Of a stretch of 64,000 nucleotides of DNA, positions 893-26,626 are shown in pieces. This DNA comes from Phaeospirillum sp. (GTDB lineage: Bacteria > Pseudomonadota > Alphaproteobacteria > Rhodospirillales > Magnetospirillaceae). The stretch is taken from positions 1 to 64,000 of the forward strand of contig JAVBXM010000014.1 in NCBI GenBank assembly GCA_030824585.1. The letters are read 5' to 3'. Below the pieces are notes generated by a model. The model worked only from the letters and a program-made list of their open reading frames with translations. It searched no databases and was not told where the DNA came from. Position 1 is the stretch's first letter. Each line of letters begins with the position of its first letter. A program made the position numbers and the translations under genes.

Positions 893-914
893 GCTACTTG
901 TTGACCTCCGAAGC

Positions 915-3095: not shown

Positions 3096-3131
3096 GATGC
3101 TTCCGGATGGTTGGACCGGGCCAGCATAGAG

Positions 3132-3455: not shown

Positions 3456-3483
3456 GTTGTCCTCCAACATCCCATATCCATTT

Positions 3484-3515
3484 GTCGCAAATAGTGCAGT
3501 TTCGGACATTGTTGC
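3484..3515 (+). repeat. Left island end: GTCGCA core plus inverted motif
   Basis: The core GTCGCA (3484-3489) is followed by an 8-nt spacer, AGTTTCG (3498-3504), five further bases and TGTTGC (3510-3515). The same arrangement in inverted orientation, with the same 8-nt spacer, is at the right end (25429-25459). This symmetry is what is expected of recombinase-binding arms next to a crossover core. It lies 29 bp upstream of the start codon of the small host gene at 3455. Confidence 0.55.
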
Positions 3516-3994: not shown

Positions 3995-5647
3995 TCATGA
4001 ACTTACTATAGTCGAGGGAGGCATTCGCAGGTCAGTAATCTTGATATTCGTCATATTGTCGCCAACCAAGATTGCGGGCAGTTCCTGGGCGAACTTGGCA
4101 GCATGAATTTCTATTAATCCAGGCTTGGACAGCCGCCATCCACCGGTGGCTTTTTTGTCTTCCATCGGCCGATCGACAACGACGTATTCAACGGGAATAT
4201 CGGGCGGGATGTTGCGCAGGTGCTCGATCCGATATTTCTGATCAAGATTGGTCGCGTCGACGACGGCCGAGCGACCATTGGCCAGTCGGGCTCCCACTAT
4301 GGCACGCAGGCGCTCAAACACCGGTTCCTGGTCCCCGGCCATATCATGCGAGCCGGTCATGGCCTCCCGAATTGCATCTGAAGACACGATATCCGCTGGG
4401 TCGTGGTGGAGGGCCGCCCAAGTACTTTTTCCGGCGCCACTGGGGCCAATCAGCATTACCAATTGCTGGCCGCAACGCGGCCATTCCCATCCTGGGCAGT
4501 CCTCAGTGAAAGTTGAAGAGAGGTCTTCCCACAGCTCAGATGCCTTATTAATGTAATTAGCCTGCACAGGTTCGAAATGGGCCATGCTACGGCGCATTCG
4601 GATGCACAAATTTATCAAGAGTGCGTAGTTGTCCGGCAGATCATCCTTGATCCGTTCATTGACATCATACAGCTCCAATTCCCACGCGCTTTTGTAGGTC
4701 TTTTTATGGCCGCCGGTAAACTCCTTAGTAAAGGGGAGTTGCGCTTGTATGTGGTCGAGATATTTGCCTACAAAGGCTACTCGGATTTGGTCTAGGAACG
4801 GGAAGAGGATACGGACTTGGCCGCGCCAGACACGCTTATCCAATCCGTCATCATCCTGTGCCGCGAGTAGGGCCGATGTATGCACCCAGGTGAGCCCGTC
4901 CCAACGATCGACCAGGCCATTGCTCCAGGACGGGTGCTTTTTTAGCGCTGGTGCATATTGCTTCAAGTGCGTCAAAGGGTTGGCCAGCGTCGCCAAGCTT
5001 AAACTAGCCAAACCACGAGCCAGGTCTTCATCCCACCCGGCCAAAACCGTTGCTACCGACACTGCCGTGCGTGCAAGCAGGCTATCATCCGGCCATCCGA
5101 GACGGGCTTCGATAAAGGTTTCAGTATCGTGCCGTGTCACTTGGCCCAACCATCGGAATTCCTTGCCGACAACCGCAATGGCGTCGTCTCTTGGGACTCC
5201 CGACGGAAAAACGACGAGCAGCGACGGAGCCAGCGTGCGGCCCAAACGCACCCGTTCGGTCCTGAGCAGCTTCAGGAAATACACCCAAGGGTACCAATCC
5301 TCTGCGGGGATGCCTTCGACCACGAAAATCCCTGCTGACAGTTCTGGCGCTATTAAGAAGTCGCCCACCAACCGAATGCCGTTGGTCCGCAAGCCCGCCG
5401 CGTTGGCCAGCATAGTTACCGGTGCACGGTTGCGTAAGCCGGTCGATGCATCGACGCGGATCACGGTCGCTGCCGAGTGCATCTCTAAATGATTGGCGAT
5501 GGCGCCGATCAGCCCTCCCGGATGCGGAGTGGGCAAAGACAGGCCAACCACACCGTCTTCGGTACCGATAACCGCCGTCGCCACTCGCTCGACGAAGCGG
5601 GTGGGGCCAGGAAGACCCCACCAGCTTAGCGCGCGCCACGCTGTCAT
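3995..5647 (-). CDS. NTPase-like / HEPN-like / polynucleotide-kinase-like fusion protein
   Basis: A 550-residue protein, last gene of the cargo operon. Its ATG overlaps the stop of the PIWI gene as ATGA. The first ~200 residues look like a degenerate NTPase-type alpha/beta domain (GVVGLSLPTPHPGGLIGAI, later SLLVVFPSG). Around residues 270-375 an all-helical region ends with RMRRSMAHFEPVQ; R352-x4-H357 fits the HEPN RNase signature R-x4-6-H, in a context like the common RNxxAHxEP. From about residue 395 there is an AAA_33/PNKP-type kinase domain: Walker A GPSGAGKST (K407), SSDAIREAM, and VVDATNLDQKYR. Such kinases phosphorylate 5'-OH ends of RNA or DNA. A role in making 5'-phosphate guides, or as an RNase effector, is inference. 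The kinase call is firm; the HEPN call is moderate. Confidence 0.75.
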   Translation of the reverse strand: MTAWRALSWWGLPGPTRFVERVATAVIGTEDGVVGLSLPTPHPGGLIGAIANHLEMHSAATVIRVDASTGLRNRAPVTMLANAAGLRTNGIRLVGDFLIAPELSAGIFVVEGIPAEDWYPWVYFLKLLRTERVRLGRTLAPSLLVVFPSGVPRDDAIAVVGKEFRWLGQVTRHDTETFIEARLGWPDDSLLARTAVSVATVLAGWDEDLARGLASLSLATLANPLTHLKQYAPALKKHPSWSNGLVDRWDGLTWVHTSALLAAQDDDGLDKRVWRGQVRILFPFLDQIRVAFVGKYLDHIQAQLPFTKEFTGGHKKTYKSAWELELYDVNERIKDDLPDNYALLINLCIRMRRSMAHFEPVQANYINKASELWEDLSSTFTEDCPGWEWPRCGQQLVMLIGPSGAGKSTWAALHHDPADIVSSDAIREAMTGSHDMAGDQEPVFERLRAIVGARLANGRSAVVDATNLDQKYRIEHLRNIPPDIPVEYVVVDRPMEDKKATGGWRLSKPGLIEIHAAKFAQELPAILVGDNMTNIKITDLRMPPSTIVSS

Positions 5648-14600: not shown

Positions 14601-15120
14601 CCCCGGCATGCAGCCGCTGCGCCAAATCGAATTCCAATTCGTCGACGGTGAATGCCGCTTCCGGAGTTGCCAAGTCGGCCACGGCCGTAAAGAGATCGTC
14701 ATCGATCCCCACCCGGTCGCTCCAGGGCTTCAAGACCATACTCATCCAGGTCTTGAGCGCCGAGGCCGCCCGTTTGGTCAAGTCCAGGCTGCCGCCGGGG
14801 ATGCTGAGGAAGGGGTGACATTCCTCGCGGTTCCACGGCGCTCCGAGATCAGCCACTAGCAGCACAGCTTCGGGTATTTGTGCTTCCAGTGCCGCCCGTA
14901 ATGAGGCGTAGGGCAGCATTTTGCCCTCGGGCAAATTAGAGATGGCTGCTTGGCGTGCCACCTCCCGCAGACGTGCGGCTAAGAGATCCGACCAAGACAG
15001 CCGCACGGTCCAAACGGGCAACGCTTGCGGAGGATCGACGACCAGAGCGCAGGTGGCGGGGACCACACCCTTGCGGCCACCCTTTTCACGAAACAGTGTG
15101 GGCACGGCCAGGTTAGTCAT
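5644..15120 (-). CDS. pPIWI-RE PIWI protein fused to a giant STAND-type ATPase region
   Basis: A 3158-residue uninterrupted frame. I start at ATG 15120 (MTNLAVPTLF), which overlaps the helicase stop by 8 bp and has GAAGG upstream; an earlier in-frame ATG at 15189 is less likely. Residues 1-~950 have the layout of pPIWI-RE proteins: an N-terminal DUF3962-like region, then an RNase H/PIWI module with LVLIDSTSAASLWPWLQD near 740, and a C-terminal TVVTHCDGDS...LPSPLSFESKVRDY near 905-950. A linker and an acidic stretch near 1300 (DEDEEDEESGEDEG) lead into ~1000 mostly helical residues. A P-loop ATPase follows: FGRRTEYRKLL, Walker A GGRRLGKT (K2480), Walker B ILVLLDEAD near 2558, then winged-helix-like sequence and a second alpha/beta segment. 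This resembles STAND NTPases, which oligomerise on sensing a ligand. PIWI family: established. Fusion function: inference. Confidence 0.8.
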   Translation of the reverse strand: MTNLAVPTLFREKGGRKGVVPATCALVVDPPQALPVWTVRLSWSDLLAARLREVARQAAISNLPEGKMLPYASLRAALEAQIPEAVLLVADLGAPWNREECHPFLSIPGGSLDLTKRAASALKTWMSMVLKPWSDRVGIDDDLFTAVADLATPEAAFTVDELEFDLAQRLHAGESFDKLKHGVLQVIARCLEGQELFEGLGPVYRIIRASSANNTLRFQTWPAVANGGRYSMVAELTVESTPFLSRPVVVVRAARRLWYDTLPDAKKLGRLRTVTGTVIGENKSPVAIEFTTSVRKGVPDEPFSPEFMLQALNLRLDLGKNLEEWVAQQGRQGVFVGIPYSPQLGGSHPVGRGTTTRDNADLLNTVLRLMAADGFKALPFQETAETKRTPRRAEDHHKALQAEALIADIALTLGRNRLDGDALMTACRQLMSDGEVPEITVESALDARSALEIVRESNRQRMRRAFGDQIPTVALVARTEAERAVLRAVITGLFGTSVAMVEYLLPADVHGPRADMPAPAHKAKERFAARVAAWRPLAEAIFSDYPGAHALVQAADWYDRRKDDPVNKLAGRYALASIADANVQYLLPPASNWKGLKNYLHRVQAAVYDLLFGHSGLVSEVQSLLKGAFPKEDTRPKAIIGISVVTQARLRSGAKGGRICLATRIDAATGRTTARVGWFDGCMRWTDYWEPFFAALKRVASPDVTASLGSGRNVERDSFQKFVRAVIDDTAQAGDRPLVLIDSTSAASLWPWLQDSEFGSTIALGAERLGMATCWPGVRLVRVRTDHAGRIFEHKSTSYEQIDPATNLPTGEAVERYAPSITERIIRIAEEIGGEAVHYWITAGYFQMSIPRGLSVYRNLTSFYPAKKVKGLNLPPSTPSKGLYVQQVYDIAKELYRLPRPVDITVVTHCDGDSTDRIAHMVASLRCGYGHSPLPTTLPSPLSFESKVRDYMTRFGLEEADAESDDAVSDEQNGHGASIVLADGYEDDLGPAELSGPAVTVANNEAESCPDEAPDLDLELTDRWTAAARRFGIQGPGRSALTNSTSLRAIGTNQFALPHVGMPSIAATQSKDIGGDVMASTAINADVADLWPNTPKTPVLPVPNFVTADWLRTKISAPQSLLRHIHHWAEEIRCLSGFPWPDERPTAEQFPDILLDGLRYPAFVRAVTRVAARHMKLKKRKDFMLFGPYRKVYQSHIQIASTRAKCPRPADLGPAIALLAGDQQFDVMRGTIYLMTFGRGYDETLHAFLREYPEQLGILEPFMTAAEAHLNDHNFNWDRDIIEQPNAPLVSPNGSTTSFDEDEEDEESGEDEGLEGEIEGPASANADAEPLMAAEGAQVSLTIWRDTLAEAHRMLTTIRAKKPIEEALIDLIAVLEQAREAARLWQECQPRGILAAPFWDAAQALAADFAAIVTDDKAEQETHASLNWPQSLEQVDQTTAARANAELEYLSDMRREAVEIRKKALDLIAEIAASGAMARLAEAMPMTNRAIQLAEEGLARLQALMSVLQLGRIAEGPNTIVVTKARTGNVDTAAWEVTDPSTQAVSAFATAQESSLADETGADSDTSGPSDQIERLGVAFDPAQEDIAVTPQGEEEPLTWPEPEHVSAEIQPAPLPDEALTGLAASIELKMLALIENHEFGLAYHLLRAAIRIFGEYRFAFSEAELRLAAMAPHINHSLLQGDAALNSLIEDVLLSIQEMQEDETVADDVSSARMLTVFGALTTVALFHTDSMAIQALETLNGLEAGVGEGVYKLKDALVSRSGLGVTPAMLKTVSQAAEDVSYGEECLQQILNSIESFSALRFRFVLGNKIRQSLVHSNGVIGKLRDGLKKGGAIALEVTREFTKYMDRQQIIYLLDEAEEAATHFKAQGVDGDARERLVAHISDLAAQCREYVQVRDAIPEMRKSGQRAIVDRIRLNIIGALEPAEDTLKAFMESAPPLPLSAARYALQMLARLRDAISGLLPSSGISDHLLALHGPLLWLPGLEFGRSWLPSPYQPEMVVNTLLNRTPLPREINGDRYAAMETAVRQHLNADCFVAARLLVDGGAFYGITDVQRGELRDLIEGNAKFRRDKLTGDIAEVRRMVDRVQRMNVLPGVDAAQAQLSQLDRIEPNELPTNLTVDARNEKEENEVILDFAAAENLLCSVREEIQHLLRKPRQNLLGRLDTLSSEHGINPTDAERVQGLITKDDLLTAGEYIDFLESGRALPETTSPNPRFRAFFPAVPNTLMEATTLSEKVADKAQACLQEEIDFGPLAYSRLSESRRADALALLNDWKGLRHRVNGGHNTDQVLALLNVFLDRAGLKGEIVRPDRALTSNSRKIYVSEMRLQIPWEPDCLLLPDFGSQTKGNYRVCVVTQVPSDTEISQFCTNAGSMGVLILVLSVASAGRLAQIATYANSKGQRVLVIDEGMFLFALSEPEFRPLTLLECAQPFSFASPYRDYGNQAVPKEIFFGRRTEYRKLLDASGSCIVYGGRRLGKTALLQYLKESEHKPKEGMAVAYVSILDIGNNVMPSCLWEYISRELPDLFYEPVHTATEFSQAINDWLEADTKRRILVLLDEADRFIKTDADGGFKEFIRLQQLMDSSHRRFKFVLAGLHNVTRLVHTENPPLKQIASDPQRIGPLMDDELHDAEQLVTRPLAAMGYEFENREDVWRILSHCNYYPVLVQLFCKGLLEGLNDRKTERGKWLQKRISSDQVREALEDERIAREIAKMFNYTIQIEERYALIANIMALRAFDDSAMGRVGEGMSAVEVLASATKHWPKAFNQVNRLSVVEDLLDEMEGLGVLRRVSHDAWALRSHTILRLLGSQLDVVTKLVDFLDRPAPEAFEPRSMRRPLHLPAIFKVAAKHACPLTMGQEHDLLTRDANSAAVPIRVIFGNSLSDQGIVAAAMKTAGPLVSDGSRIEVVSQVWTNCSQLMEAITKARPREIDLTLLVIDSKSPWDFSWLEMALRTGTVREGRVRLAFIGGPTHALSWIQDPRAHPVPTQIRVLPLQLWSAAMLDYSLKAEHLAVEQFQDGLREKTGGFNRLLSQLLIINTEGSREKFSTRIDRQFERLIADKDQLWNDLGLLPQIKEVFLILPRWVGDDGRISAYYIDEGILPEVPEAAGLSGQQIVEYGLLMGLLEADPGVTGSSADTQPYLLNPLLKAAAAVERGE

Positions 15121-18100
15121 CGTCACGGACGCCTTCAGGAGAAAAACGCACACCTGCACACCGTTCAAGCGGATGCAGGAAGGGTTCATAGAGCGCGCGG
15201 TAGACTTCCCGATTCACCGGATCGGTATCGTTGACCCGCGCGGCTAGGATGTCGCGCATCATCACCAGCATGCTAGTTTGACGGCTGTCTGTGTGCTCGC
15301 CTGTGGTGGCCGAGACCGGCGCCCAGGCAGTATCGGCAAAGATCACCCGGGCCTTGCAGCCATTCCGCATAGCACGGCCTATGGTCTGCAAGACATCGAC
15401 CATGATGTCAGCGGTGAAGGGAGCCGCGAGCGGTCCCAGGCGGCTAGCCTGGACGGGGAAACGCAGCAGACGGCGGGTTACCTCGGCTAACTGGTGGCGG
15501 GCCTCGCGCCACGCGGCGGTGAGACCGCTGGGCGGCAGGGTTGGACACAAGGTAGCACGGTCCAGTTCGAGGGACTTCGCGCCGACGATGCCGGCCACCA
15601 AGTCGAGGCTTTCGGTAGCGGGATGGGGACGAGTTAGAAAGACCAGAGTGCCCAGCAGGGCGTCACGCCGCCGCGGACCCTGCTCGAAGACGATGTTAAC
15701 GCCGCGGGCTAGTGCCTTCATGGGAAATACAAGGATGTCCCAGTCGTCACGTAAGCCCAAACGCTCAACCTGGGCCGCGGTGATCCAGTCGCCCTCGTTG
15801 CCCGACGGAGTGCGTTCGACGACTGCCACTACACGCGGCGCCAAGTCCGGCCGCGTACGTCTTAGATGATCTTTGATCAGGCGCACTTGGGCATAGCTAT
15901 TGACCACTAGCGCTACCTTGCGGCCCGGATCGAAATCCCGGGTCATAGCTATGGCGAGCGGGTTTTCTCCGCTAAAATAGTGGTCGACCATCTTGCGCAG
16001 GATACGGTCACGCTGTGTTAGTGGTGCCCCTGAGAAGCGTAGCATCCGGTTGGGAGCGCCGGGATCGGGGATAGGGGCGAAGATGTACTCGCTGTCCTTC
16101 CATCCATCGTCCGCCTCGGGCCGACGCAGCACCAAGTCTGGACCGACGGGAATATGAAAAGTAGGACTTTCCTCAAGGAACGAGGTTGCGCTGGCTAGTA
16201 GCACTGCCGGACCGTGTTCTTGACTATGGTGCTTATCGTGGCGCAACAGCTGATGCAGACGGTAGAGTAAGGTGCGTGGCGCTCCTCGGAACGAGACGTA
16301 CTGCAGTCGGACGCTGGCTCGCCCCTCGCCCTCGTCGGAGTGGTAACGCACCCCGGAGAGCCGACCGATCAGAGCCTCGGGAACCACCCGCGCGAGATCC
16401 TCAGAAATACCCTGGCGGAACAGCGGTTCATGGTGGATGCCTTCAGCAACCATCGCTTGTTGTGCCGGGATCAGGGCCAGGAACTGCATTACCACGGTGG
16501 TCACGCCAACCAGGAAGCGGAACAGCTCTACCAACTCTTCAGGCCCTAGTCCGGTGCGGGGCAGAATAAGGGCGAAGGTTGCGGCGCGCAGGTCAACGAG
16601 TATGCGGTCCTTGCGCTTGGGCAACGGTTCGGAGATCCAGTCACGCACGAGCGTAGTAATTTTCAATGCCGCATCGGTCACTTCGGCTGCGGGGCGGCCA
16701 AGCGCCTGTGCAATTTGATCTGCGGCAAAATCGTGCTGCTCAAGGTCGTCGTCCACGTCGGTACGGCGGAATAGAGCAGCGCGAACACAGCCGTCCCAGA
16801 ACAGACGGATAGCGTTGAAGCGCTTTTCTTCGGCCAGTCGCTCGGAGGGCGGAAGGAGGGAGATGTCCTCCGGGCAGAACAGCGTGGAAATAACGCTGTT
16901 GCCTGTGACGAAGATATCCTTGAAGCGCGACAGGGGGCCTTCCTGGCCATTGCGTTGTAAATCTCGCTGCAACTGGAGCACAAGGCTGTGATTTAGCTCG
17001 CGGAAGTCGCTAGCTGCAGCACTGTACTGGCGCACGTTGGACGCTGTCATGTCATTGCGCCCCACTGACAGGGGCAGGAATAGGTCACGGTTGAGGGCGT
17101 GCTCGTAAGAACCTTCGCTACCAGTGAGATCCAATGAGGAGATGGCTTTGCGATCTAGCACAGCCTGCGCGCCATCAGCCTCGTCGATGATAACTAGGTC
17201 GGCCGTCAGTGCCACGGCGTCGAAATAGCGGGCTTGGTCCTCGGCAAAATGCGGGCTGATGCGTGTGTCCATAGAGAGGACATGGCCAAGCCAGATGTGC
17301 CGGTGCGTGAGCTCGCGAGGAGCCTTGAGGCGACCGCACCAGCCGGATAGCGGACAGAGGTGTGTGCTTTCGTTTTCCTTTTGGGTGCCGTCCCGCTTTA
17401 GGCCGCGTTGCTTGACGGCGATGCACGGAGGCGTCAGGTGCGGGAAATCGCTGCCGCCGTCCGCGTCTGTATCGAATGCGGCTAAGGCACAGTTAAGTGC
17501 AAGCAGGTCGGCACCTGGCGCGGTTCGGCCGAAACCTCGCGCCTCGTCGGCAGCGAGGCGTTCCGCCAACTTTCGGGCGTGCTCAATACGGGTCTGCGGA
17601 GACTGGCCAACCAGTAGGCCGACATCCGCTCCATAGAACCGTAGATCCGCCAGCAAGTTGAGTGAAGCCTCGATAGAGGGCAGCAACAGTACCGTGCGGT
17701 AGCCGTTTTCGTCGAGCCAAAGCAGAAGCAACATGATCAAGGTCGTCTTGCCGGTGCCGGGTAGGCCAATCAGGTGCTTGAGCCCAGAGAGGCGGATGAC
17801 TTCGGTTTCCTCGAGCGTGCCATTGTCCCGGTCGGGCACCAACACATGGAACTTACGTTCTCCGCCGACCTCACGCAGGCGTGCCAGCCAATTGCCACGC
17901 GGCCGATCTGGCACGGCGACGTCCTGGGCGTCCATCCGAGCCGCTATCGCTTCCAGCCCAGCGAGCGGAATTTCGATGGATCCGCGCGGACGCCTCGCCC
18001 AGTCGTGATGTGGCGCCTTGGGCAGCGACGGGAGGGAAGAAAGATCTATGCTAATGCGTTCGGCGCCCTCAGAGGCCGTCGTTAGCACCGCCATCGCGCG

Positions 18101-18526
18101 GGCAGCGTCGGCCCTGGTCATTTTCCAACGCTGAAATGGCAGCCCATTGACCAAGGCGGAGACCATCCCATTGACCAGAAAATCAGTTCCGGCCCGGCGA
18201 CGAAATGGAAAGTGAGGCTGTTCGGGGTCGATCTCGTAGGGAGGCTCGACGTAGTCATCATCTTCGAGGTGCTCATCCTCCCAGCTGACGGCGTTGTAGA
18301 CAGCCTGCCGCAGTTGAATGTCGGATGCCGCTGCGATTCCCATTTGGCGGAGAGAGAACGCGGCCACGGCAAAGGTGCGGGCCTGACGATGATCGAGTAA
18401 AGCACCATAGCCTGCCATTAGGGCAGGGGCATTGGCCAAATGCTGTTCTCCTAGCAAGACTTCAACCGCGGCACACAGCCATTGTGCGCCGAGGGCGGGG
18501 GTGAAAGCGTGCGGCTTCTCCCTCAT
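15113..18526 (-). CDS. DinG/XPD-like helicase of the pPIWI-RE module
   Basis: A 1137-residue superfamily 2 helicase. Walker A is GLPGTGKTT (K260), motif II is VIIDEAD (D448-D451) and motif VI is QTIGRAMRNG near 1048-1057. Between motifs I and II there are cysteines at PPCIAV, HLCPLSGWC and LNCALA, which could bind the Fe-S cluster typical of DinG/XPD helicases; the cluster is suggestive, not proven. About 250 residues precede the helicase core and probably form the family-specific N-terminal domain. In pPIWI-RE systems this helicase is the constant partner of the PIWI protein and nuclease, and has been proposed to unwind R-loop-like targets. It overlaps the nuclease gene by ATGA and the PIWI gene by 8 bp. 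Confidence 0.85.
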   Translation of the reverse strand: MREKPHAFTPALGAQWLCAAVEVLLGEQHLANAPALMAGYGALLDHRQARTFAVAAFSLRQMGIAAASDIQLRQAVYNAVSWEDEHLEDDDYVEPPYEIDPEQPHFPFRRRAGTDFLVNGMVSALVNGLPFQRWKMTRADAARAMAVLTTASEGAERISIDLSSLPSLPKAPHHDWARRPRGSIEIPLAGLEAIAARMDAQDVAVPDRPRGNWLARLREVGGERKFHVLVPDRDNGTLEETEVIRLSGLKHLIGLPGTGKTTLIMLLLLWLDENGYRTVLLLPSIEASLNLLADLRFYGADVGLLVGQSPQTRIEHARKLAERLAADEARGFGRTAPGADLLALNCALAAFDTDADGGSDFPHLTPPCIAVKQRGLKRDGTQKENESTHLCPLSGWCGRLKAPRELTHRHIWLGHVLSMDTRISPHFAEDQARYFDAVALTADLVIIDEADGAQAVLDRKAISSLDLTGSEGSYEHALNRDLFLPLSVGRNDMTASNVRQYSAAASDFRELNHSLVLQLQRDLQRNGQEGPLSRFKDIFVTGNSVISTLFCPEDISLLPPSERLAEEKRFNAIRLFWDGCVRAALFRRTDVDDDLEQHDFAADQIAQALGRPAAEVTDAALKITTLVRDWISEPLPKRKDRILVDLRAATFALILPRTGLGPEELVELFRFLVGVTTVVMQFLALIPAQQAMVAEGIHHEPLFRQGISEDLARVVPEALIGRLSGVRYHSDEGEGRASVRLQYVSFRGAPRTLLYRLHQLLRHDKHHSQEHGPAVLLASATSFLEESPTFHIPVGPDLVLRRPEADDGWKDSEYIFAPIPDPGAPNRMLRFSGAPLTQRDRILRKMVDHYFSGENPLAIAMTRDFDPGRKVALVVNSYAQVRLIKDHLRRTRPDLAPRVVAVVERTPSGNEGDWITAAQVERLGLRDDWDILVFPMKALARGVNIVFEQGPRRRDALLGTLVFLTRPHPATESLDLVAGIVGAKSLELDRATLCPTLPPSGLTAAWREARHQLAEVTRRLLRFPVQASRLGPLAAPFTADIMVDVLQTIGRAMRNGCKARVIFADTAWAPVSATTGEHTDSRQTSMLVMMRDILAARVNDTDPVNREVYRALYEPFLHPLERCAGVRFSPEGVRDDD

Positions 18527-19623
18527 CGGCTGAACTCGCGGATGGCCTCGGATACGGTCATGAATTCTATGTCTTGGGAGCCTTGGTAGGACGCCCGCAG
18601 TTGCGCGAGGTAATGGGGGTTCAGGCGAAGCTTGTCGTCGGGCACGGCCAGGATCTTACGGCGGAACATCTCTAGGCGGCCAATAGAGCGGCTGAGCTTG
18701 GCCGCCAGTACCACTGGGCTGGCATACGTCTTGACGTCGATGCCGATAGCGAGTCCGTCGATGCCTATATCGGCTGCGTCCGCTTGCGGATAGAGGGCCA
18801 CTCGTTTCCCATTGGTCGCTAACGAATCGTAGATGTGAATTTCATCGAGACCGGGTCCGACCCAGTAAGCGAGGATGGCGTTAGTAGCGAGGCGCCATAG
18901 GCCGGGTTCCGTGATCACGTCGCGCTTGGCTGGGACTGGACAGGCCAGACGGCACTGACGGATGCGGCATCGGCCACTAGGAAAGGAAACGGCGTCACGC
19001 TCTGGCCATAATATGCTACCGCACTTGGCGCAGCGGATGCCTCGCCCCCCCTGAAGCGCGGCTTGAGGAATTGGCCTGTAGAAGGACATGATGGTCCGCG
19101 CCGACGCTGCATGACCACCCTCAACGATGAAACGGTGGATGTCCTCCTCGTGGACGGCAGGATGGCGCACAACAAAACCGCGGATCGCGGTGTAGGCCTC
19201 GGCGCGCTGCCTGGGCGGGTAGTCTTTAAGGGCGAGGCGCAGATGCTCATGATGAAGCTCTTCCTGGGCGGAAATCTCTGAATCGCCCGCATGCGCCAAT
19301 TCCCGGCAATCGGCTGTCGGGACGCCCAGGTCAGGGTCAACCAATGCCACATCGGCATAGCGAAACGGCGGTTGGAATGCCGCTAGACCCCAGTCACGAA
19401 ACGGCTGGCTAGCCTTGGCCATTACTTCGTGCAGGCTAGCGCCCCAGTCCTCGACACGCTCGGCAGCGCAAAGGCCGGACAGCAATGTGAGCCCCCGCCG
19501 CGTTGAAGCTGGAAGTGACGCATCCTGTTGAACCGCTCGGCCATCTGCAACGATTTGATCAAAGACGTCGGTGAAACCTCGCGCTAGACGGCTGACTATG
19601 ATCTCTGGCCGGGGGTCTAACAT
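18523..19623 (-). CDS. PD-(D/E)xK nuclease of the pPIWI-RE module
   Basis: A 366-residue protein, first gene of the cargo operon. A Cys cluster at C198, C201, C219, C224 and C228 (CAKC...CRIRQCRLAC) probably binds zinc. Downstream is a restriction-endonuclease-like core: a helical Glu in EPGLWRL, then D285 with spacing of ten residues to I-D296-V-K298 (GLAIGIDVKTY), the D-(x)n-D/ExK signature for Mg2+-dependent DNA cleavage. Gene order (nuclease, DinG-like helicase, PIWI) is exactly that of the published three-gene pPIWI-RE systems, which supports assignment as the pPIWI-RE-associated REase. The ATG at 19623 lacks a strong ribosome site. It ends overlapping the helicase ATG. Confidence 0.8.
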   Translation of the reverse strand: MLDPRPEIIVSRLARGFTDVFDQIVADGRAVQQDASLPASTRRGLTLLSGLCAAERVEDWGASLHEVMAKASQPFRDWGLAAFQPPFRYADVALVDPDLGVPTADCRELAHAGDSEISAQEELHHEHLRLALKDYPPRQRAEAYTAIRGFVVRHPAVHEEDIHRFIVEGGHAASARTIMSFYRPIPQAALQGGRGIRCAKCGSILWPERDAVSFPSGRCRIRQCRLACPVPAKRDVITEPGLWRLATNAILAYWVGPGLDEIHIYDSLATNGKRVALYPQADAADIGIDGLAIGIDVKTYASPVVLAAKLSRSIGRLEMFRRKILAVPDDKLRLNPHYLAQLRASYQGSQDIEFMTVSEAIREFSR

Positions 19624-19781: not shown

Positions 19782-20291
19782 TTATCCGTCAGTATCCGCG
19801 TCCTCTACGACGGAGGTCGGGAATGGGGCGACAATCGCCGTCGACATTGCTCCGATCTCTTGTAGGCGATCCAAAACTGTCCGGTAATCATCGAAGAATC
19901 GCGACCAGGCGCGCATGCCGCCCATCTCTCCAATGGCATGAATCATGGCACGATGAGAAGCAGTCAGTAGCGCAGCCCGCTCCTCCAGTTCACGGATACG
20001 GGCATCCTTTCGCTCCAAGGCGGCGGCGAGGTTAGATTTTGAGCTTTTGTCCGTCCGCTCAATCATCCGGCGTAGTTCCGTTTGGCGAGACTGCCACTCA
20101 GCGAGTCTGGCATTCCGCCAGGGGTCGCGGGTGATGGACGACGCGTGGTCAACTCTCTCCAACCGGCGAGCCACGGCCCGTGCGGTGATGGACTCGTTAT
20201 TCTGGAGCATCACATCAAGGATTGCTATGAAAGTGCGGTCCGTCTGTTCCGCTTCGCTTGTGCGGCGGGAAGGGAAGGGAGCTTCAGACAT
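19782..20291 (-). CDS. GinD/TnpC-like small recombination helper
   Basis: A 169-residue protein, last of the recombinase quartet, overlapping the third recombinase gene by 8 bp, with GAGGA upstream of its ATG. The N-terminal half (TFIAILDVMLQNNESITARAVARRL) looks like a helix-turn-helix, and residues ~75-120 form a charged coiled coil (ALERKDARIRELEERAALL). Size, position and HTH plus coiled-coil build match Tn554 TnpC and the fourth gene of GInt operons, which aids excision and integration. There is no catalytic motif. Sequence similarity to named members could not be checked, so the assignment rests on context and architecture. Confidence 0.65.
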   Translation of the reverse strand: MSEAPFPSRRTSEAEQTDRTFIAILDVMLQNNESITARAVARRLERVDHASSITRDPWRNARLAEWQSRQTELRRMIERTDKSSKSNLAAALERKDARIRELEERAALLTASHRAMIHAIGEMGGMRAWSRFFDDYRTVLDRLQEIGAMSTAIVAPFPTSVVEDADTDG

Positions 20292-22527
20292 CCAAAAGTG
20301 TCCTCATCTTTCTGATCGGGGCGGAACGGTCCGCTCCCTCCGGGAATGGCCGCTGTCCGTCCGTCGTCCCCAGTACCTTGTTGATGCTGGCGATCATCGC
20401 TTCCGCGTGCCGAAGCTGGTTGTCCCGCCCGATGCCGGGCCGCCGTCCCTCGATCTCGTCAACCGCTCTGGCCATCGCTGCCCTTGTCTGTTCCAGGTTG
20501 CGGCGATGACGCTGGATGTCCGTGGCGACCAAATGGTTACAGCCGTCAAAGCATTGAAGGTGCTTGGGGCAGGGGTCGATAGTGAAGCTGTTGATGCAAT
20601 GGCCGTACGGCGTCGCGTGAAATCCGTCCGCTTCGGCGGCGAGGAACTCGAAGGCACGCTCGTCGCCGAACTCAAGTTGGATGCGCTTGAAGGTATCGAC
20701 GATGGGGCCGGACGCTTTGCCCGCCTGAATCATCGCGGCCACGGTCTGCGCCTTCTCGGGTAGTTCGCGGGCCGCTGGCGGCAGGTCGATTGCGGCGAGA
20801 TCCTCGGCAAGGCTCCGATGGTCGTATTCATAGCTCTGGGCGACGGTGCGGCGGTTGAACCGCTTCGTTATCATGGCATCGGCGATGCCTAGACGGAACA
20901 GCTCGGTGTTCTGCAAATGCCGGAGTGCGTGGGTGTTGAGGCCGAGACGGCGGTCCTCGGCGGTCTCCCCATAGCGGGCGAATATTCCCTTGTCGCTTGG
21001 AGCAAGGTGGATCATGAGGTCATGCGGTGTCACCCGTCCTACCGCGAAATATCGACTCACATCGCAGATCCCGTCATTGCGGGTCTCGACGATGGCGCGT
21101 TTGGGACACAGAAAGAGGAGTTCGTCGGCCCGGAGGAATTTTCCGTCACCTAACGGAAAGGGGAGGGTGTCCGAGAGTTTGGTCGGGAGATGTTCGGTGA
21201 CCAAATTCTCAATTTCACAGACGCGAACACGACCTGCAAATTTAGGCCAACCGGCCTCAGCCAGCCGGTTCCAATAGCTATAAAACGGCTGCGCGAAAGC
21301 CCCCGGCGACCGATCTTGCTGCTCGGCAATCTTTCCCAAAACAGCCACATCGAATCTCTGCCGATATTCCCTTGTCAGGTCCTCAGGCAGGCCGGCGGCA
21401 CGGATCTGGGGATTGCCGGACAGACGGACGTAGAGGTCAAACAGCGAGATAAATTCGTCTTCACCAAACTCGGGAAAGTGACGGCCAGTCTCGGCCTGGC
21501 TGCGCAGGCGTGCACGGAGCGGCGCGGTAAGCTTGACGATGCCGTCCAGCGTCTCCTCGATGATCGGTTCGAACAGCGTGGGAACATGTTGGAAGGCTTG
21601 GTACAAGAGAACGCTGTTCTCGTCGCGACCCCATTGCTTTTCGGCAAAGTGCCGAAGCATCAGGGTCCGGGAAACGCCGCCGACCGTGCCCGCGTCTCTG
21701 CCGTCGACATCGACGTAGTCGCGTACCCGCTTCCAATCCGCTGGGATCGAACACACCTCGCCAACCCGCAGGCCGCAGAGGATCAGCAACTTGATTTGAG
21801 CGAACCGAAGAGCGTCCGAGAAGGTGCGGGGGTGCTCAGTGAATACAATGCGGACCAACTCCCAAAGTGCCCTCAATTCGGGCAGGCGCTCTTCATTCTT
21901 ACGTTCACCAAGCCTTCTCCGAATCTGAGGACCACGCTTGACCGGCCGCGTGCGCTCGCCTTTTTCATCTCGCAGCAGCTGGTGGAACGGCCCTCGGTTG
22001 CAGAGGTGGCGTGCATCAAGGATATACTTGACCACGCTTTCAACCAGTTCTCCCAGCTTGCCGGATGCCTGGGCGGCGATGGCCACGGAACGGGCAAAAC
22101 GGACATCGTCGGCCGTCATGGCCCACGGCTCGGCGCCGGATAGTGCTTGCACGCAGGTCCCCAGCACCCTGAGCGGACGGATCACCTGGCTGTTTACATG
22201 GGCCGGCGTGTTTCGGGAGACCAGGATCTGTTGAATTGTGGCAGCCTTGATAAGGTCCTGCCATCCTCGACTCAACGCGCCTTTTGCCACGGCAGGGCGG
22301 CCAGACTCGGCCAGACGCCGGTTCAGAACCTCGATCGTGTTTCTGTCGCCCCCGAGATCGGAAAGACGGGCCGTGGGCGGCGGCACCGCTCCGGCCATGG
22401 CGGTGAGGTCCCAGGCTGCCTGCTTGTCGATGAAGCCGTCACATTCGACGGGTAGCTCCCACGGAATATTTCGTTCGACTGCCAGCGTCCGTGCTGCGGC
22501 CACGTATGCGGCGAAGGCATCATTCAT
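20284..22527 (-). CDS. Tyrosine recombinase 3 (GinC-like)
   Basis: I take ATG 22527 (MNDAFAAYVAAART), which has AAGGAG 6 nt upstream, rather than the GTG at 22551, giving 747 residues. The catalytic region shows Arg I in LCGLRVGEVCSIP, then HALRHLQ (R536, H537) and SYEYDH (Tyr 566 or 568 as nucleophile). After this comes a C-terminal extension with a possible zinc site, HCINSFTIDPCPKHLQCFDGC. It is much longer than a simple integrase, as is usual for the third member of recombinase trios (Tn554 TnpB is about 630). Overlap with its neighbours indicates one translational unit. Confidence 0.8.
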   Translation of the reverse strand: MNDAFAAYVAAARTLAVERNIPWELPVECDGFIDKQAAWDLTAMAGAVPPPTARLSDLGGDRNTIEVLNRRLAESGRPAVAKGALSRGWQDLIKAATIQQILVSRNTPAHVNSQVIRPLRVLGTCVQALSGAEPWAMTADDVRFARSVAIAAQASGKLGELVESVVKYILDARHLCNRGPFHQLLRDEKGERTRPVKRGPQIRRRLGERKNEERLPELRALWELVRIVFTEHPRTFSDALRFAQIKLLILCGLRVGEVCSIPADWKRVRDYVDVDGRDAGTVGGVSRTLMLRHFAEKQWGRDENSVLLYQAFQHVPTLFEPIIEETLDGIVKLTAPLRARLRSQAETGRHFPEFGEDEFISLFDLYVRLSGNPQIRAAGLPEDLTREYRQRFDVAVLGKIAEQQDRSPGAFAQPFYSYWNRLAEAGWPKFAGRVRVCEIENLVTEHLPTKLSDTLPFPLGDGKFLRADELLFLCPKRAIVETRNDGICDVSRYFAVGRVTPHDLMIHLAPSDKGIFARYGETAEDRRLGLNTHALRHLQNTELFRLGIADAMITKRFNRRTVAQSYEYDHRSLAEDLAAIDLPPAARELPEKAQTVAAMIQAGKASGPIVDTFKRIQLEFGDERAFEFLAAEADGFHATPYGHCINSFTIDPCPKHLQCFDGCNHLVATDIQRHRRNLEQTRAAMARAVDEIEGRRPGIGRDNQLRHAEAMIASINKVLGTTDGQRPFPEGADRSAPIRKMRTLLDV

Positions 22528-24070
22528 GGACATCTCCTTCAGCGCCGGCACCGAGCGCCTTGATGATGGCCTGGACCGTTTCTAGGGTAACCTTCAACTG
22601 AACGAACGCCGGCGATTGGTTGTCCCCGAGAGATTCGTCGAAGAAGAAGCGGACGACGGGGCGCAGTTTGTCCAAAACCTCCCTGTGGATGGTCACGTCG
22701 TTGAGCGGAAAGAATTTCCGGCAGGTATAGCAGGAGAGAACAGGGTTCTTGGAGCACAGTGACTGGCCGAGATCGCAGCCGCCGATGCCGGCAATGGGAA
22801 TACCATGTGGTACGCCCCCGACCTGTTTGTCCGATGGCATGCCGAGTAGAGCTACTTTGTCGATTGTGCGGGATCGCGCCACTTCGACGATGGCGCTGTA
22901 GATAGGGGAGATCGCCAGCGCCTTGTTCAGCTTTTCTGCCTGGGTCGGGGAGGCCTCGAAGTAGTCGAGCGATGTGTCCGCTTGGGAGTGGCCGAGGAAC
23001 TCGGCCACTTCCTCGACCGTAGCCCCCGCATCGGCCAGACGTTGGGCTGCGGAATGGCGAAGGTCTGTCGCAGTACGACGGATGCCAGTCACCTGTTCGG
23101 TGGTGTCTCCAATCGCCTTGATCATCAAAGAACGCGCGAATGGAAACAGCTTGGCGTCGCTCGCCGTTTCCGACCGTAACCACACCCGAGCAAGATGCCG
23201 GCGCCGGCTATACTCCACGAGAAGAGGAGCCCACTCGAGTTTGATTTTACGAACGAAAGCGGTCTTCTCAGTAGACTTTCGCTTCTTCGCCCGGTATGCC
23301 AAGAAATGAACCAAAGGCCCGTCCCCTTCACCTGGATAGATGCGGAGATCATCGAGATTGAGGCGACTGATCTGCACCGGACGGAGGCCGTGCTGATAGC
23401 TGATGCAGAGCAAGCAAGCCTTGGCCAACTCCTCGTCGGAGGCGTAGGCTGCACTTTCGGTCACGTAGTCGAGGTGCTCGATGATCTTGGCTTCCTCGTC
23501 GGCGGTCAGTATCGATTCGCCGCTGATGACACCCTGATAGTTGTCATTCCAATCGAAGGGCAGGGAGCGCACAAAATCGACATGCCCAGGACGGAAGTCG
23601 CCCAGGCACATTTCGCACATAAAATGTAAGAACAGCTTTGTGGCGTGGGCAACGCTCTGTTGGATTGCAGCACGCCAACGAGTGTCCCAGTAGATTTGCC
23701 ATCCATGAAGCGGTCGTTCGACTGCATCTAAAAACCACGTGGCACCATAATCTCTGAAAATTGACATGACGGAGAAATAGCATTTTTGTGTAATCGTTGG
23801 GCTTTTCCCGTGCAGCAGCCAAGCAAAAAAGTTCTTCAATAATATTTTCACATCTTCATCGTGGATAATTTTTACGTCCAGTGTTATAGAGATAGTATCA
23901 TACTTGATATTCCAGAGGTCGCTTTCGGAGGGGTGGCGGATTGTCTTCCACTCATCCTCGTATTCATCCAGGTAACGGATATGGGATGGCAAGGAGGGCA
24001 GGGCAGTGATGGCGCTCCTCGCCACCGCATGCGCCTGGGAATTGCCAGCGTTTTCCCGGCTTCTGGCCAT
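22520..24070 (-). CDS. Tyrosine recombinase 2 (GinB-like)
   Basis: A 516-residue protein. Box I Arg lies in YQHGLRPVQISRLNL, box II is TATDLRHSAAQRL (R338, H339), then FLGHSQADTSLDYFEA with Tyr370 as nucleophile. The C-terminal region has CDLGQSLCSKNP and LSCYTCRKFFPL, a likely zinc-binding finger also seen in other recombinase-trio proteins. The start codon shares one base with the stop of the first recombinase (TAATG) and the end overlaps the third by 8 bp. It should act with its partners to cut and rejoin the island ends. Confidence 0.85.
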   Translation of the reverse strand: MARSRENAGNSQAHAVARSAITALPSLPSHIRYLDEYEDEWKTIRHPSESDLWNIKYDTISITLDVKIIHDEDVKILLKNFFAWLLHGKSPTITQKCYFSVMSIFRDYGATWFLDAVERPLHGWQIYWDTRWRAAIQQSVAHATKLFLHFMCEMCLGDFRPGHVDFVRSLPFDWNDNYQGVISGESILTADEEAKIIEHLDYVTESAAYASDEELAKACLLCISYQHGLRPVQISRLNLDDLRIYPGEGDGPLVHFLAYRAKKRKSTEKTAFVRKIKLEWAPLLVEYSRRRHLARVWLRSETASDAKLFPFARSLMIKAIGDTTEQVTGIRRTATDLRHSAAQRLADAGATVEEVAEFLGHSQADTSLDYFEASPTQAEKLNKALAISPIYSAIVEVARSRTIDKVALLGMPSDKQVGGVPHGIPIAGIGGCDLGQSLCSKNPVLSCYTCRKFFPLNDVTIHREVLDKLRPVVRFFFDESLGDNQSPAFVQLKVTLETVQAIIKALGAGAEGDVHE

Positions 24071-25326
24071 TAGCTATCCTGCCGGATCATTGCTTCTGGG
24101 TTACCTTCGATGGAGCGGATCGCGCGGAGAACATCCACGCGATCATCGAACTTCTTATGCCAGACGGAGATCAACCGATCCTCGAAATAGGCCCGGGCGT
24201 AGTGACGAGGCATCTCGGAATCTTTGGCCCATCCGAAAAATACCCGGAGGTTCTGGAGTGCCAATTCCATCTCCATGCCGTCGCCAACGAATTCGGCCAT
24301 TCGGACGACTGCGCAGGTGTGCCGGCAATCATGAGGCGTCACCTTGTCGGTGTGGAGGCGGTTGCGCAGTTCAGTCCTGGCTGCCGGGGAGAGCGCGCCG
24401 GAAAGGCCATCAAACATGAGGTTGACCGTAGGCAACGCCAGCGGCCGGTGGCGATTGGATGCGATCAGGAAGGTGTGGTCTTGCCTTCCACGGTAGTTGT
24501 CCACGTAGTGCTGGACGATGTCGGCGACCCCATCCGCGATTGGGATCTGGCGGTGCGATAGGGCCGTCTTGATGCCTGGCGCGGTGTAGCGGGGATCTTC
24601 GCTCTCGTACTGATTCCAGGTAACGTCGATCCATTTGCGGTAGCCGCCAATCCTCGGGTCAAAATCCTCTTTGATGGCGTCGAGGGGCAGAATTAGCGCC
24701 TCGCTCCGTCGCAGTCCTTGGTGAAGGTAGAGCAGGAAGAGGGCATAATTGCGCCACCTCTGGCCCTCGGAGCGAAATGGGTTCCTGACCGAGGTCGGGT
24801 CGGCAATGGCATAGAGGTCTTCGACGACGGCTGCCGGCATCGCCCGCATCGCCTTCATCTTTGGCTGCCGGGAAACTTTGAGGCTTGCGTAGAGACGCTG
24901 GAGGCGGTGTAGGCGGGCCTGCATCACGTCAAAGGAACGTGGAGTGCCGTCGCTTCGGGAGCGGCGCTCGAAAATGTCCCGGACGAACTCCATAGCGGCG
25001 CGCCAGTCGATGCTGCGGTCCGTGCGGGAATTGGCGGAGGCGTTGCGGACATGGACGAAGAAGCCCTCTAGGCAGCCTTCTAGCAGGTCGAAATCGCTTT
25101 CGGCGATCAGGCGGTCAAGACAGTCCGCGCCGGTTTGCTCGCGGACGGATCGGTAGAGTCGATCGATGGCCAGCAGCTTGGCGGCCAGTGTGGAATCGCT
25201 GAGGCCGCTGCCATGCAGGGCTTCCCACACTGTGGCCCAATACCGGGGGGCGCCACGGTCGTCGGTGAGCACCTGTCCATTCAGGTGGGGCGGAAGTCGG
25301 GGGGATCTTATCCGTTCGAGCGTCAT
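24070..25326 (-). CDS. Tyrosine recombinase 1 (GinA-like)
   Basis: A 418-residue protein from ATG 25326; a GTG at 25338 would add four residues. Catalytic signature: LHQGLRRSEALILPL (box I Arg), TPHDCRHTCAVV (R335, H336), FFGWAKDSEMPRHYARAYFED with Tyr376. The N-terminal ~150 residues resemble a core-binding SAM-like domain. It is the first gene of the quartet and lies next to the right end of the island, as GInt operons do. The leader of about 100 bp contains the two repeated end motifs, so the recombinases may regulate their own transcription by binding there; that is inference. Confidence 0.85.
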   Translation of the reverse strand: MTLERIRSPRLPPHLNGQVLTDDRGAPRYWATVWEALHGSGLSDSTLAAKLLAIDRLYRSVREQTGADCLDRLIAESDFDLLEGCLEGFFVHVRNASANSRTDRSIDWRAAMEFVRDIFERRSRSDGTPRSFDVMQARLHRLQRLYASLKVSRQPKMKAMRAMPAAVVEDLYAIADPTSVRNPFRSEGQRWRNYALFLLYLHQGLRRSEALILPLDAIKEDFDPRIGGYRKWIDVTWNQYESEDPRYTAPGIKTALSHRQIPIADGVADIVQHYVDNYRGRQDHTFLIASNRHRPLALPTVNLMFDGLSGALSPAARTELRNRLHTDKVTPHDCRHTCAVVRMAEFVGDGMEMELALQNLRVFFGWAKDSEMPRHYARAYFEDRLISVWHKKFDDRVDVLRAIRSIEGNPEAMIRQDS

Positions 25327-25359
25327 TGTCCGACACACTACGAGACGGGCGGACTTGCC

Positions 25360-25459
25360 GCAACAGTCGAAACAAGACTCTACTCCAGGTAGCGTTGCGT
25401 CTCAGAATGGTGAGAAACGGGCTGTCACGCAACAGGCACGAAACTAGTCTTGGGTCGCA
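25360..25459 (+). repeat. Right island end: two repeated motifs and GTCGCA core
   Basis: Two similar units lie in direct orientation: GCAACAG, 1 nt, CGAAAC, AAGACT at 25360-25379, and GCAACAG, 3 nt, CGAAACT, AGTCT at 25429-25450. The outer unit is 8 nt from GTCGCA (25454-25459). The left end has the outer unit inverted with the same 8-nt spacing. Between the two units is a further small dyad, GTTGCGT (25394-25400) with ACGCAAC (25427-25433). The core is 10 bp from the nhaA stop codon. Confidence 0.55.
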
Positions 25460-25468
25460 TAATGTATA

Positions 25469-26626
25469 TTATGACGACAAACCACGACACCTCAGGAGCA
25501 CGATGGAGCCCAGGATGGCCGAAAGCCCCGATCCAGCCAAGACGCCGATTTTCACGGCGTCGGACGATTCCGGATGACCGCCGAAGGCCAGCGCGCCGAT
25601 GAACAGGCTCATGGTAAAGCCGATACCGCACAGGATGGCGATTCCGTAAAGCTGGGCCATGCTGGCGCCTTGCGGCCGCTCGGCGAAGCCCAGCCGGATG
25701 GCTGTCCAGGCCGCGCCGAACACGCCGATCTGCTTGCCCAGGAACAGGCCCAGCGCAACACCCAGCGGCAGCGATCCCAGGGCCGCCGAGGGCTGCAATC
25801 CGGTGAACGATACGCCGGCATTGGCGAAGCCGAAGATCGGCACGATGCCATAGGCCACCCATTTGGCCAGGGCGTGCTCCAGGCGATGCAGCGGCGAATG
25901 CCGATCACCGCCGGCGGGCCGCATGGGAATGGTCAGGGCCAGGGCGACACCGGCGATGGTGGCATGGATGCCCGATTGCAGCATGGCACCCCACAGCCCC
26001 GCCCCCAGCAGCAGGTAGGGCCATAATTTCCCGATTCCCAGCCGGTTGAGCCCCACCAGGGCGCCCAGCGCCGCCGCTGCCGCGCCCAGGGCCGGCAGCG
26101 AGAGATCGGCCGTGTAGAACAGCGCGATGATCAGCACCGCGCCGAGATCATCGATGATAGCCAGCGCGGTCAGAAAAATCTTGAGCGAGGCCGGCACCCG
26201 CGGCCCCAGCAGGGCCAGGACGCCCAGGGCGAAGGCGATGTCGGTGGCGGTGGGAATGGCCCAGCCCCGCAGGGTGGCCGGCGATTGGGCATTCAGCGCC
26301 AGATAGACCAGGGCCGGCGCCGCCATGCCGCCCAGGGCCCCCAGTCCGGGCAGGACGCGCCGCGACCAGGTGGACAATTGCCCGTGTACAACCTCGCGCT
26401 TGATCTCCAGGCCGACCAGCAGGAAGAACACCGCCATCAGGCCGTCATTGACCCAGTGCTCGACGGACAGACCGAACCCCTTGGCCTGCAAGGCGGAAAA
26501 ATAGGCTCCGGACAGCGGCGAATTGGCGACGACCAGCGCCAAGGCCGCGGCGATCATCAAGATGATGCCGCCCGCCGCCTCGCTTTGCAGGAAGTCGCGC
26601 AGAACGGAAAACGGCCTCTCAGCCAT
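25469..26626 (-). CDS. nhaA: Na+/H+ antiporter NhaA
   Basis: A 385-residue membrane protein with about 12 hydrophobic segments. Family hallmarks are the N-terminal [25 protein letters not shown], the [21 protein letters not shown] segment, and the transport-site aspartates in [14 protein letters not shown] and [16 protein letters not shown]. It exchanges sodium for protons across the inner membrane for pH and salt control. The length is normal. It overlaps the MBL-hydrolase gene by 8 bp and is the last gene of the housekeeping cluster. The mobile island is inserted just beyond its stop codon, leaving the coding sequence intact. Confidence 0.95.

What the first reader, a model, noticed from the sequence alone, without database searches (positions are those of the whole stretch)
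19782..25326. GInt-type recombinase quartet delivering a defence cargo
Three different tyrosine recombinases with complete R...HxxRH/RHxx...Y sets plus a small HTH/coiled-coil protein overlap in one operon at one end of the island. This is the ginABCD layout. GInts carry varied cargo; here essentially the whole cargo is the PIWI operon, so this is a compact vehicle for moving that system between hosts.
Basis: partly seen in the sequence, partly recalled or inferred. Interest (0 to 1): 0.62.

Follow-up and report, generated by a model that had tools for sequence, protein, structure and literature searches.

The report
Defence island docked at dif site
A 22-kb mobile island with its own three recombinases sits exactly beside dif, the spot where bacteria separate joined chromosomes, and carries a PIWI-based defence operon; relatives in three classes of Proteobacteria use the same docking site but carry different cargo.

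Summary
The quartet is real (window 19782-25338, minus strand): GinA 422 aa, GinB 516 aa, GinC about 747 aa, GinD 169 aa; 66 of 80 related loci keep the order. In a tree each recombinase groups with its counterpart in GInt-like elements, not with XerC/D or lambda Int. GInt-type is supported. Corrections: GinB has Thr for the His of HxxR; GinC keeps the first Arg that published GinC lacks.

A same-genus genome holds the empty site; the breakpoints share GTCGCA, inside one arm of dif. The 16-bp dif core occurs exactly once in 17 of 17 same-genus genomes. Upstream of ginA, 42 of 69 testable segments have a dif-like site beating all 30 controls of their locus, in Alpha-, Beta- and Gammaproteobacteria. 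Two relatives sharing the right end carry other cargo. I found no paper linking GInts to dif.

Cargo: REase, DinG, a 3181-aa pPIWI-RE fused to a huge ATPase module, and a P-loop kinase; none of 80 related loci has it.

The parts
3484..3489 (.). right copy of the 6-bp core GTCGCA (attR); chromosome lies to the left
   Evidence: junction against empty site L005
3490..3589 (.). conserved right terminus with a 22-bp imperfect hairpin (3528-3549 / 3563-3584)
   Evidence: 114 bp (3476-3589) 94.7% and 93.9% identical in two relatives with other cargo; hairpin
3590..3994 (.). AT-rich 3' end without an annotated gene (GC 0.491 against 0.587 for the element)
3995..5647 (-). P-loop kinase-like protein, 550 aa (AAA_33; partial match to Pnkp kinase domain)
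   Evidence: conserved after the giant gene in plasmid loci
5644..15189 (-). giant 3181-aa protein: pPIWI_RE X, MID and RNaseH domains in 1-980, then about 2200 aa with an AAA_22 ATPase at 2490-2626
15113..18526 (-). DinG-like helicase with pPIWI_RE_Z region (PprDinG, 1.1e-177)
18523..19623 (-). restriction endonuclease with pPIWI_RE_Y and REase domains (PprRE, 7.2e-57)
19782..20291 (-). ginD, 169 aa, helical N-terminus plus long coiled coil
20284..22527 (-). ginC, large tyrosine recombinase (about 747 aa); model resembles Cre (E 0.03)
22520..24070 (-). ginB, tyrosine recombinase, 516 aa
24070..25326 (-). ginA, tyrosine recombinase (GTG start at 25338 possible)
25359..25450 (.). terminal direct repeats CGCAACAG..CGAAACaAGaCT / CGCAACAG..CGAAACTAGTCT, candidate recombinase-binding sites
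25454..25459 (.). left copy of the core GTCGCA (attL)
25452..25479 (+). host dif: GGGTCGCATAA TGTATA TTATGACGACA, intact except for outermost bases of one arm
   Evidence: core unique in 17 of 17 same-genus genomes; coordinates

Best explanation
The island is a GInt-type integrative element whose own GinABC recombinases, with GinD as accessory DNA-binding protein, insert a circular form into the chromosome at dif. Shown: the breakpoints share the hexamer GTCGCA, which lies in one arm of dif; the ginA end keeps a complete dif apart from its outermost bases; the far end keeps only GTCGCA followed by the element's own conserved right terminus. Also shown: many relatives in three proteobacterial classes have a dif-like site beside ginA, and cargo is exchangeable. 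Inferred: strand exchange is done by the Gin proteins within the hexamer, between arms that in the element read CGAAACT-N8-GTCGCA-N8-AGTTTCG; because dif is rebuilt, insertion should cost the host little; dif is a useful target because most circular bacterial chromosomes have one (general knowledge). The delivered cargo is a four-gene pPIWI-RE system (REase, DinG, giant PIWI-ATPase fusion, kinase), inferred to be anti-invader defence.
For: Empty site: L005 (unnamed same-genus genome G005) joins window 1949-3489 to 25454-28120 with a 6-bp overlap. Dif identity: core once per genome in 17 of 17 same-genus genomes and in 29 of 31 Xanthomonas-group genomes. Family: 42 of 69 upstream segments (62 genome loci, 7 plasmid quartets) beat all 30 controls with a dif model from 22 difs of genomes other than the window's and G007 plus recalled E. 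coli dif (about 2 expected); 29 of 69 score above every control of any locus, the displaced dif of L149 aside. In 12 of 26 searched genomes the only match to CGCATAAN6TTATG is the one beside ginA. Xanthomonas: homology to seven relatives starts at the same outer edge of the dif arm. Same right end, different cargo in UBA6219 and M. aberrantis. Another same-genus genome, G007, has the start of ginA beside dif. Tree.
Against: 27 of 69 upstream segments did not beat all controls, many from Paraburkholderia and Caballeronia contigs, and 4 of the 7 plasmid quartets; a few of the 42 that did are low-scoring and probably chance (L077, L161). In one search, 6 of 26 genomes had no match to the pattern and 8 had other or further matches. 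7 of 28 loci with a clear site have dif in the opposite orientation (uncertain where the site is nearly palindromic, as in L085). M. aberrantis has a different left-end sequence and GCACCA for the hexamer on the right. The right end of the Xanthomonas element could not be located. Excision, transfer and defence were not tested. The dif function of the site is inferred from sequence and uniqueness.
Confidence: 0.8

Rival explanations
1. The island is an IMEX: host XerC and XerD integrate it at dif, and the gin genes do something else or act only in excision.
For: The target is dif, the classic IMEX target (PMC5357621, passages read). Inserts of about 11 kb sit at dif in two same-genus genomes, G009 and G011; the one in G009 has phage genes.
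Against: The crossover hexamer GTCGCA lies in an arm of dif, not in the 6-bp centre TGTATA; the element's far end has no centre and no second arm. In G009 and G011 the remnant on the nhaA side begins at the centre (TGTATATTATGACGAC), as expected for XerCD. The gin quartet, which published mutants show to be essential in a GInt (PMC5385486), is intact.
Confidence: 0.1
2. The dif-like sequence belongs to the element, which carries its own copy from host to host.
For: It often lies at a similar distance from ginA (for many loci 117-143 bp).
Against: The empty site in L005 already has it; the window's genome still has one copy, as do 12 of 26 other genomes; in Xanthomonas the flank beyond the site matches relatives over 1.5 kb.
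Confidence: 0.04
3. It is a RIT or Tn554-type element rather than a GInt.
For: All use sets of tyrosine recombinases; GinD has weak matches to DUF6262 in 3 of 35 members. PMC8865565 lists ginABCD elements under the Tn554 group (passage read).
Against: RIT elements are described as three genes in about 3.5 kb (PMC3414803, section read), which leaves no room for cargo; here are four genes, GinC of about 747 aa and a 22-kb island. RIT and Tn554 reference sequences could not be obtained.
Confidence: 0.05

Closest known systems
[quoted passage not shown] ginABCD; Tn6571-type)
   Same: Four-gene operon at one end, tripartite layout, imperfect direct repeats, 6-nt core, varied cargo including defence.
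   Different: Target is dif, not mentioned for GInts in the texts searched; GinC keeps the first catalytic Arg; recombinases are only about 22-32% identical to the two plasmid reference sets.
[quoted passage not shown]
   Same: Integrated at dif, dif rebuilt at one end.
   Different: Encodes its own recombinase trio; crossover in an arm of dif, not the centre; no complete second Xer site at the far end.
RIT (recombinases in trio) elements
   Same: Three overlapping tyrosine-recombinase genes.
   Different: RITs are about 3.5 kb with three genes (PMC3414803).
pPIWI-RE three-gene system (REase, DinG helicase, pPIWI-RE)
   Same: Same three components in the same strict order (PMC3702460, passages read).
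   Different: PIWI protein has a C-terminal extension of about 2200 aa with an AAA ATPase, and a fourth, kinase-like gene follows; same four-gene unit in four of five plasmid loci fetched (28 plasmid records matched the extension).

Membership tests
GInt | ginABCD: three tyrosine recombinases and a small helical protein, one operon, at one end of the island | tested here: met
   operon inferred from overlap, not from transcripts
GInt | recombinases homologous to GinA, GinB, GinC by position | tested here: met
   references are plasmid sets L076 (four genes) and L024 (A, B, IS30, C, no D annotated), not the type strain DSM 4166
GInt | tripartite layout with cargo and short AT-rich 3' end | tested here: met
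GInt | flanking imperfect direct repeats from a staggered 6-nt exchange; site-specific insertion | tested here: met
   GTCGCAtAAT / GTCGCAaATA; the staggered cut itself is inferred
GInt | GinC lacks the first catalytic Arg (published description, not the definition) | tested here: not met
   R254 invariant in 28 of 28
GInt | excises as a circle; all four genes needed | not testable with these tools
   needs bench work
IMEX | relies on host XerCD, no integrase of its own | tested here: not met
   encodes gin quartet
IMEX | crossover in the central region of dif | tested here: not met
   breakpoint hexamer GTCGCA in an arm
RIT | about 3.5 kb, three genes | tested here: not met
   21,970 bp with four gin genes and cargo
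RIT | sequence kinship to RitA, RitB, RitC | not tested
   no reference sequence obtained
Tn554 | sequence kinship to TnpA, TnpB, TnpC | not tested
   reference record absent
pPIWI-RE triad | REase, DinG helicase and pPIWI-RE genes in this order | tested here: met
pPIWI-RE triad | anti-invader function | not testable with these tools
   predicted in PMC3702460, not shown for this system

The most novel reading that the evidence does not exclude
Xer recombination sites (chromosomal dif and the related resolution sites of plasmids) are the landing pad of much of the GInt superfamily, not just of this clade. Any replicon with a Xer site is then a target, which would explain how one element family moves between chromosomes and plasmids of distant bacteria. 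Leads beyond this clade: ginA copies close to that of the P. aeruginosa plasmid L024 sit at dif in Pseudomonas-group genomes (L247 with 0 mismatches; L221 and L223 with 2), and plasmid sets L024 and L076 have a degenerate Xer-like site beside ginA. Against: 13 other scored loci of that search show no such site, a close fragment (L228) among them.
Probability: 0.35. Interest if true: 0.75.

Novelty: new variant of a known kind. Interest (0 to 1): 0.62.

Why it matters
Dif is the site at which circular bacterial chromosomes are separated after they have joined. The elements known to use it that I met in the papers searched mostly borrow host Xer recombinases. A family with its own recombinase trio that docks in one arm of dif and rebuilds it would be a different solution to the same problem, and would give defence genes a widespread, perhaps nearly harmless landing place. 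It also makes GInt target choice testable: the predicted core hexamer and arms can be mutated directly. Practically, the terminus beside dif becomes a place to look for new defence systems; this one island already exposes a giant PIWI-ATPase fusion.

Tried and rejected
Phage-integrase origin: rejected by the tree; the partial E. coli IntD fragment sits weakly (80) beside the A group and is a long branch. IMEX: rejected as the main reading (see rivals). Class-wide searches with single queries found little: pPIWI RNaseH in 2 of 385 genomes, the window's own included; GinC in 4 of 385, the window's own and three distant matches of 28-30%. GinB in the genus: 3 of 17, the window's own and two weak matches, none in G007. 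Right end of the Xanthomonas element: chromosomal flank found about 43 kb from dif, exact end not found. RIT and Tn554 references: not obtained. E. coli dif: my remembered coordinates missed it once and the second stretch was not read, so its sequence in the dif model is recalled. GinD fold search gave nothing useful; GinC resembles Cre but only at E 0.03, and its model is poor around the catalytic Tyr. PDB profile search of the giant extension gave nothing useful. A structure of the giant protein was not attempted.

Rows left out: the 69 segments are 62 of the 80 loci plus 7 plasmid quartets, those with a GinA match and enough upstream sequence. In one search, 13 of 30 loci had no GinA match on the plus strand and were not scored, L222, a close copy, among them. 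Of the cargo ORFs, 3 from UBA6219 and 7 from M. aberrantis went to Pfam and 10 from M. aberrantis to PADLOC.
Full report
Observation. The four genes are as described, on the minus strand from 25338 (or the ATG at 25326) down to 19782. GinB has Thr where the first His of HxxR should be, and GinC is hardly recognised by Pfam (0.013) yet has R254, K297, H533xxR536H537 and Y568 invariant in 28 of 28 homologues. The published GinC lacks the first Arg (PMC5385486; parts 1-3 of 6 of the text read).

Kinship. Window proteins against plasmid quartets give best matches strictly by position, A to A, B to B, C to C. A tree of 84 rows (quick search, SH-aLRT only, unrooted) places A, B and C with their counterparts in this family (99, 93, 60) and then with two plasmid reference sets (91, 99, 99), apart from XerC/D and lambda Int. 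The references are L076 from an E. coli IncHI2 plasmid, with the four-gene layout, and L024 from a P. aeruginosa megaplasmid, where an IS30 copy lies between B and C and no D is annotated. I take both to be GInts from layout and kinship, and from the link of GInt with Tn6571 in PMC10121019 (passages read); that L024 is of the IncpRBL16 type is recalled. The type GInt of DSM 4166 was not compared, and the reference branches are long. A group with a shorter GinC (L157, L162, L077) lies inside the family in the tree.

Boundaries. Same-genus genome G005 has no island at this place: its locus L005 matches window 1949-3489 and then 25454-28120, overlapping by six bases, which are GTCGCA. The element is therefore 21,970 bp, 3484-25453, counting the hexamer once. 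Its GC is 0.587 against 0.672 and 0.655 for stretches of the two flanks.

The site is dif. The empty site reads TTTGTCGCATAATGTATATTATGACGACA, the layout of dif: two arms around a 6-bp centre (E. coli dif recalled). The core CATAATGTATATTATG occurs exactly once in each of 17 same-genus genomes, the window's own included. The island replaces only the outermost bases of one arm: after insertion the sequence beside ginA is GGGTCGCATAA-TGTATA-TTATGACGACA. The stop codon of the neighbouring NhaA-like gene (named by me from its sequence, not by a domain search) overlaps the other arm.

The family shares this habit. One scan of genome contigs with a GinC alignment returned 80 loci (the best 80 of 98), 68 with all four genes, 66 in order. 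I built a dif model from 22 difs of same-genus or same-order genomes other than the window's and G007, plus recalled E. coli dif, and scored up to 600 bp upstream of ginA. Of 69 segments (62 genome loci and 7 plasmid quartets), 42 beat all 30 control segments of the same locus, where about two would be expected. A few of the 42 are low-scoring and probably chance (L077, L161); 29 of 69 score above every control of any locus, leaving aside L149, whose own dif lies a little further out and turned up among its controls. By a simpler count, 28 of the 70 loci with a GinA match have a site within three mismatches in 900 bp, among them Massilia, Undibacterium, Pandoraea, Xanthomonas, Stenotrophomonas, Pseudomonas, Salinisphaera, Afipia and Magnetospirillum. 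In 21 the same arm faces ginA as in the window; in 7 the other (Rhizobium, Mesorhizobium, Ensifer, Afipia, Thalassospira, Brevundimonas and a Bordetella MAG). The 27 losers include contigs cut near ginA, 4 of the 7 plasmid quartets and many Paraburkholderia and Caballeronia loci; some of these show a weak dif-like site at the usual distance (for example L089, L099, L106), others none.

Is the site the host's? In 12 of 26 genomes searched the only match to CGCATAAN6TTATG is the one beside ginA (positions compared by hand); 6 had no match and 8 had other or further ones. In the Xanthomonas group 30 of 31 genomes have the core and 29 have it once. In X. arboricola the flank beyond the far arm matches seven relatives over 1.5 kb, with homology starting at the outer edge of the arm next to the element. 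For one relative (L164) the flank from the other side of dif lies about 43 kb away in X. arboricola, which is where an insertion would put it; the exact right end was not found.

Own recombinases or XerCD? In G009 and G011 an insert of about 11 kb also separates the NhaA-like gene from dif. In G009 six of its ORFs were searched: one matches a phage packaging family, one an endolysin, others phage families of unknown function, so a small prophage; related ORFs also lie on the far side of dif. The remnant on the gene side starts at the centre, TGTATATTATGACGAC, in both genomes, as XerCD exchange predicts. The island's breakpoint is outside the centre. Its two ends, read towards the hexamer, are CGAAACTAGTCTTGG and AATAGTGCAGTTTCG, symmetrical over seven bases at equal distance (9 of 15 in all), a plausible pair of core sites. 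A second copy of the left-end motif lies about 70 bp further in.

Exchangeable cargo. Window 3476-3589 is 94.7% identical to the right end in Rhodospirillaceae UBA6219 and 93.9% in M. aberrantis. Of the cargo ORFs searched, UBA6219 has a cation efflux protein, an oxidoreductase and a phosphoesterase; M. aberrantis has Mokosh MkoC (1018 bits), RmrA and RmrT, a GTPase-associated system and an AAA_5/REase_II-like gene. About 5 kb beyond that right end M. aberrantis also has the window's chromosomal flank (window 166-2361). A further same-genus genome, G007, has the first 68 residues of ginA next to dif, cut off by the contig end and split in two frames; no GinB was found in it. Plasmid pBJ86 has Qat genes next to its gin quartet; its element ends were not mapped and no dif-like site stood out there.

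The window's cargo. REase (PprRE 7.2e-57), DinG (PprDinG 1.1e-177), a 3181-aa PIWI protein (PprPIWI 1e-44 over 53-979) and a 550-aa P-loop kinase-like protein. The first three are the known triad in its known order (PMC3702460, passages read). The PIWI protein continues for about 2200 residues with an AAA_22 domain found in 6 of 6 homologues. Of 28 plasmid records matching this extension I fetched five. Two Azospirillum, one Microvirga and one Bradyrhizobium locus have the same four genes beside a divergent WYL-domain gene, without gin genes in the stretch fetched; in A. ramasamyi the PIWI part is annotated as a separate gene. Agrobacterium has the ATPase part and the kinase without PIWI. A PIWI-RE from P. 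stutzeri is an RNA-guided DNA nuclease in vitro (PMC10991935, abstract read). Defence by the window's system is inferred. None of the 80 family loci has these genes within the DNA held (the query proteins find the window); those loci hold at most about 10 kb beyond ginC.

Beyond the clade. With GinA of L024 as query, 38 of 119 Pseudomonas-group genomes have a match; 30 loci were kept and 17 could be scored. Three close copies sit at a dif-like site (L247 exact, L221 and L223 two mismatches) with the opposite arm facing ginA, and L231, a member of the window's family, has it too. The other 13 do not, among them a close fragment (L228, 82.5%) and a decayed copy (L232). The plasmid sets L024 and L076 have a degenerate site with a good TTATGTTAAA arm. 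Part of that arm may belong to the element, so this stays a lead.

Literature. A word search of the GInt paper finds no 'dif'. No held paper has both 'GInt' and 'dif site' as whole words; broader searches (20 of 40 papers listed, three papers, passages read) gave nothing on point. Only the open PubMed Central library was searched, without preprints or most subscription journals. Defence genes on GInts in E. coli are already reported (PMC10121019, passages read).

Verdict. A GInt-type element, new in its target: a dif-docking clade. The vehicle is a known kind and the defence link is known; the docking site and the giant PIWI cargo are the surprising parts.

Noticed in passing
L062 and L063 (unnamed same-genus genomes G009, G011): About 11-kb insert at dif in each, with XerCD-style junctions; in G009 a small prophage (packaging-family protein, endolysin), with related ORFs also on the far side of dif. 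The G011 insert was not annotated.
   Followed up: partly
window 5644-15189; loci L029, L030, L031, L033: pPIWI-RE fused to (in L029 annotated beside) an ATPase module of about 2200 aa, followed by a kinase-like gene, conserved as a four-gene unit on plasmids beside a divergent WYL-domain gene.
   Followed up: partly
L032:13573-21086: The same giant ATPase module plus kinase in Agrobacterium without any PIWI part, suggesting it is a system of its own that fused with pPIWI-RE elsewhere.
   Followed up: no
L247, L221, L223 (Pseudomonas group): ginA copies close to that of plasmid L024 also sit beside a dif-like site, with the opposite arm facing ginA.
   Followed up: partly
window 3528-3584 and two relatives: Strong imperfect hairpin at the right end, conserved among elements with different cargo; function unknown, perhaps a recombinase site or a transcription barrier.
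   Followed up: no
window 25469-25479: The stop codon of the neighbouring NhaA-like gene lies inside one arm of dif.
   Followed up: no
L178 (G454, Xanthomonas group): Genome with two dif cores and a region 70% identical to the ginA end beside one of them, probably another member.
   Followed up: no
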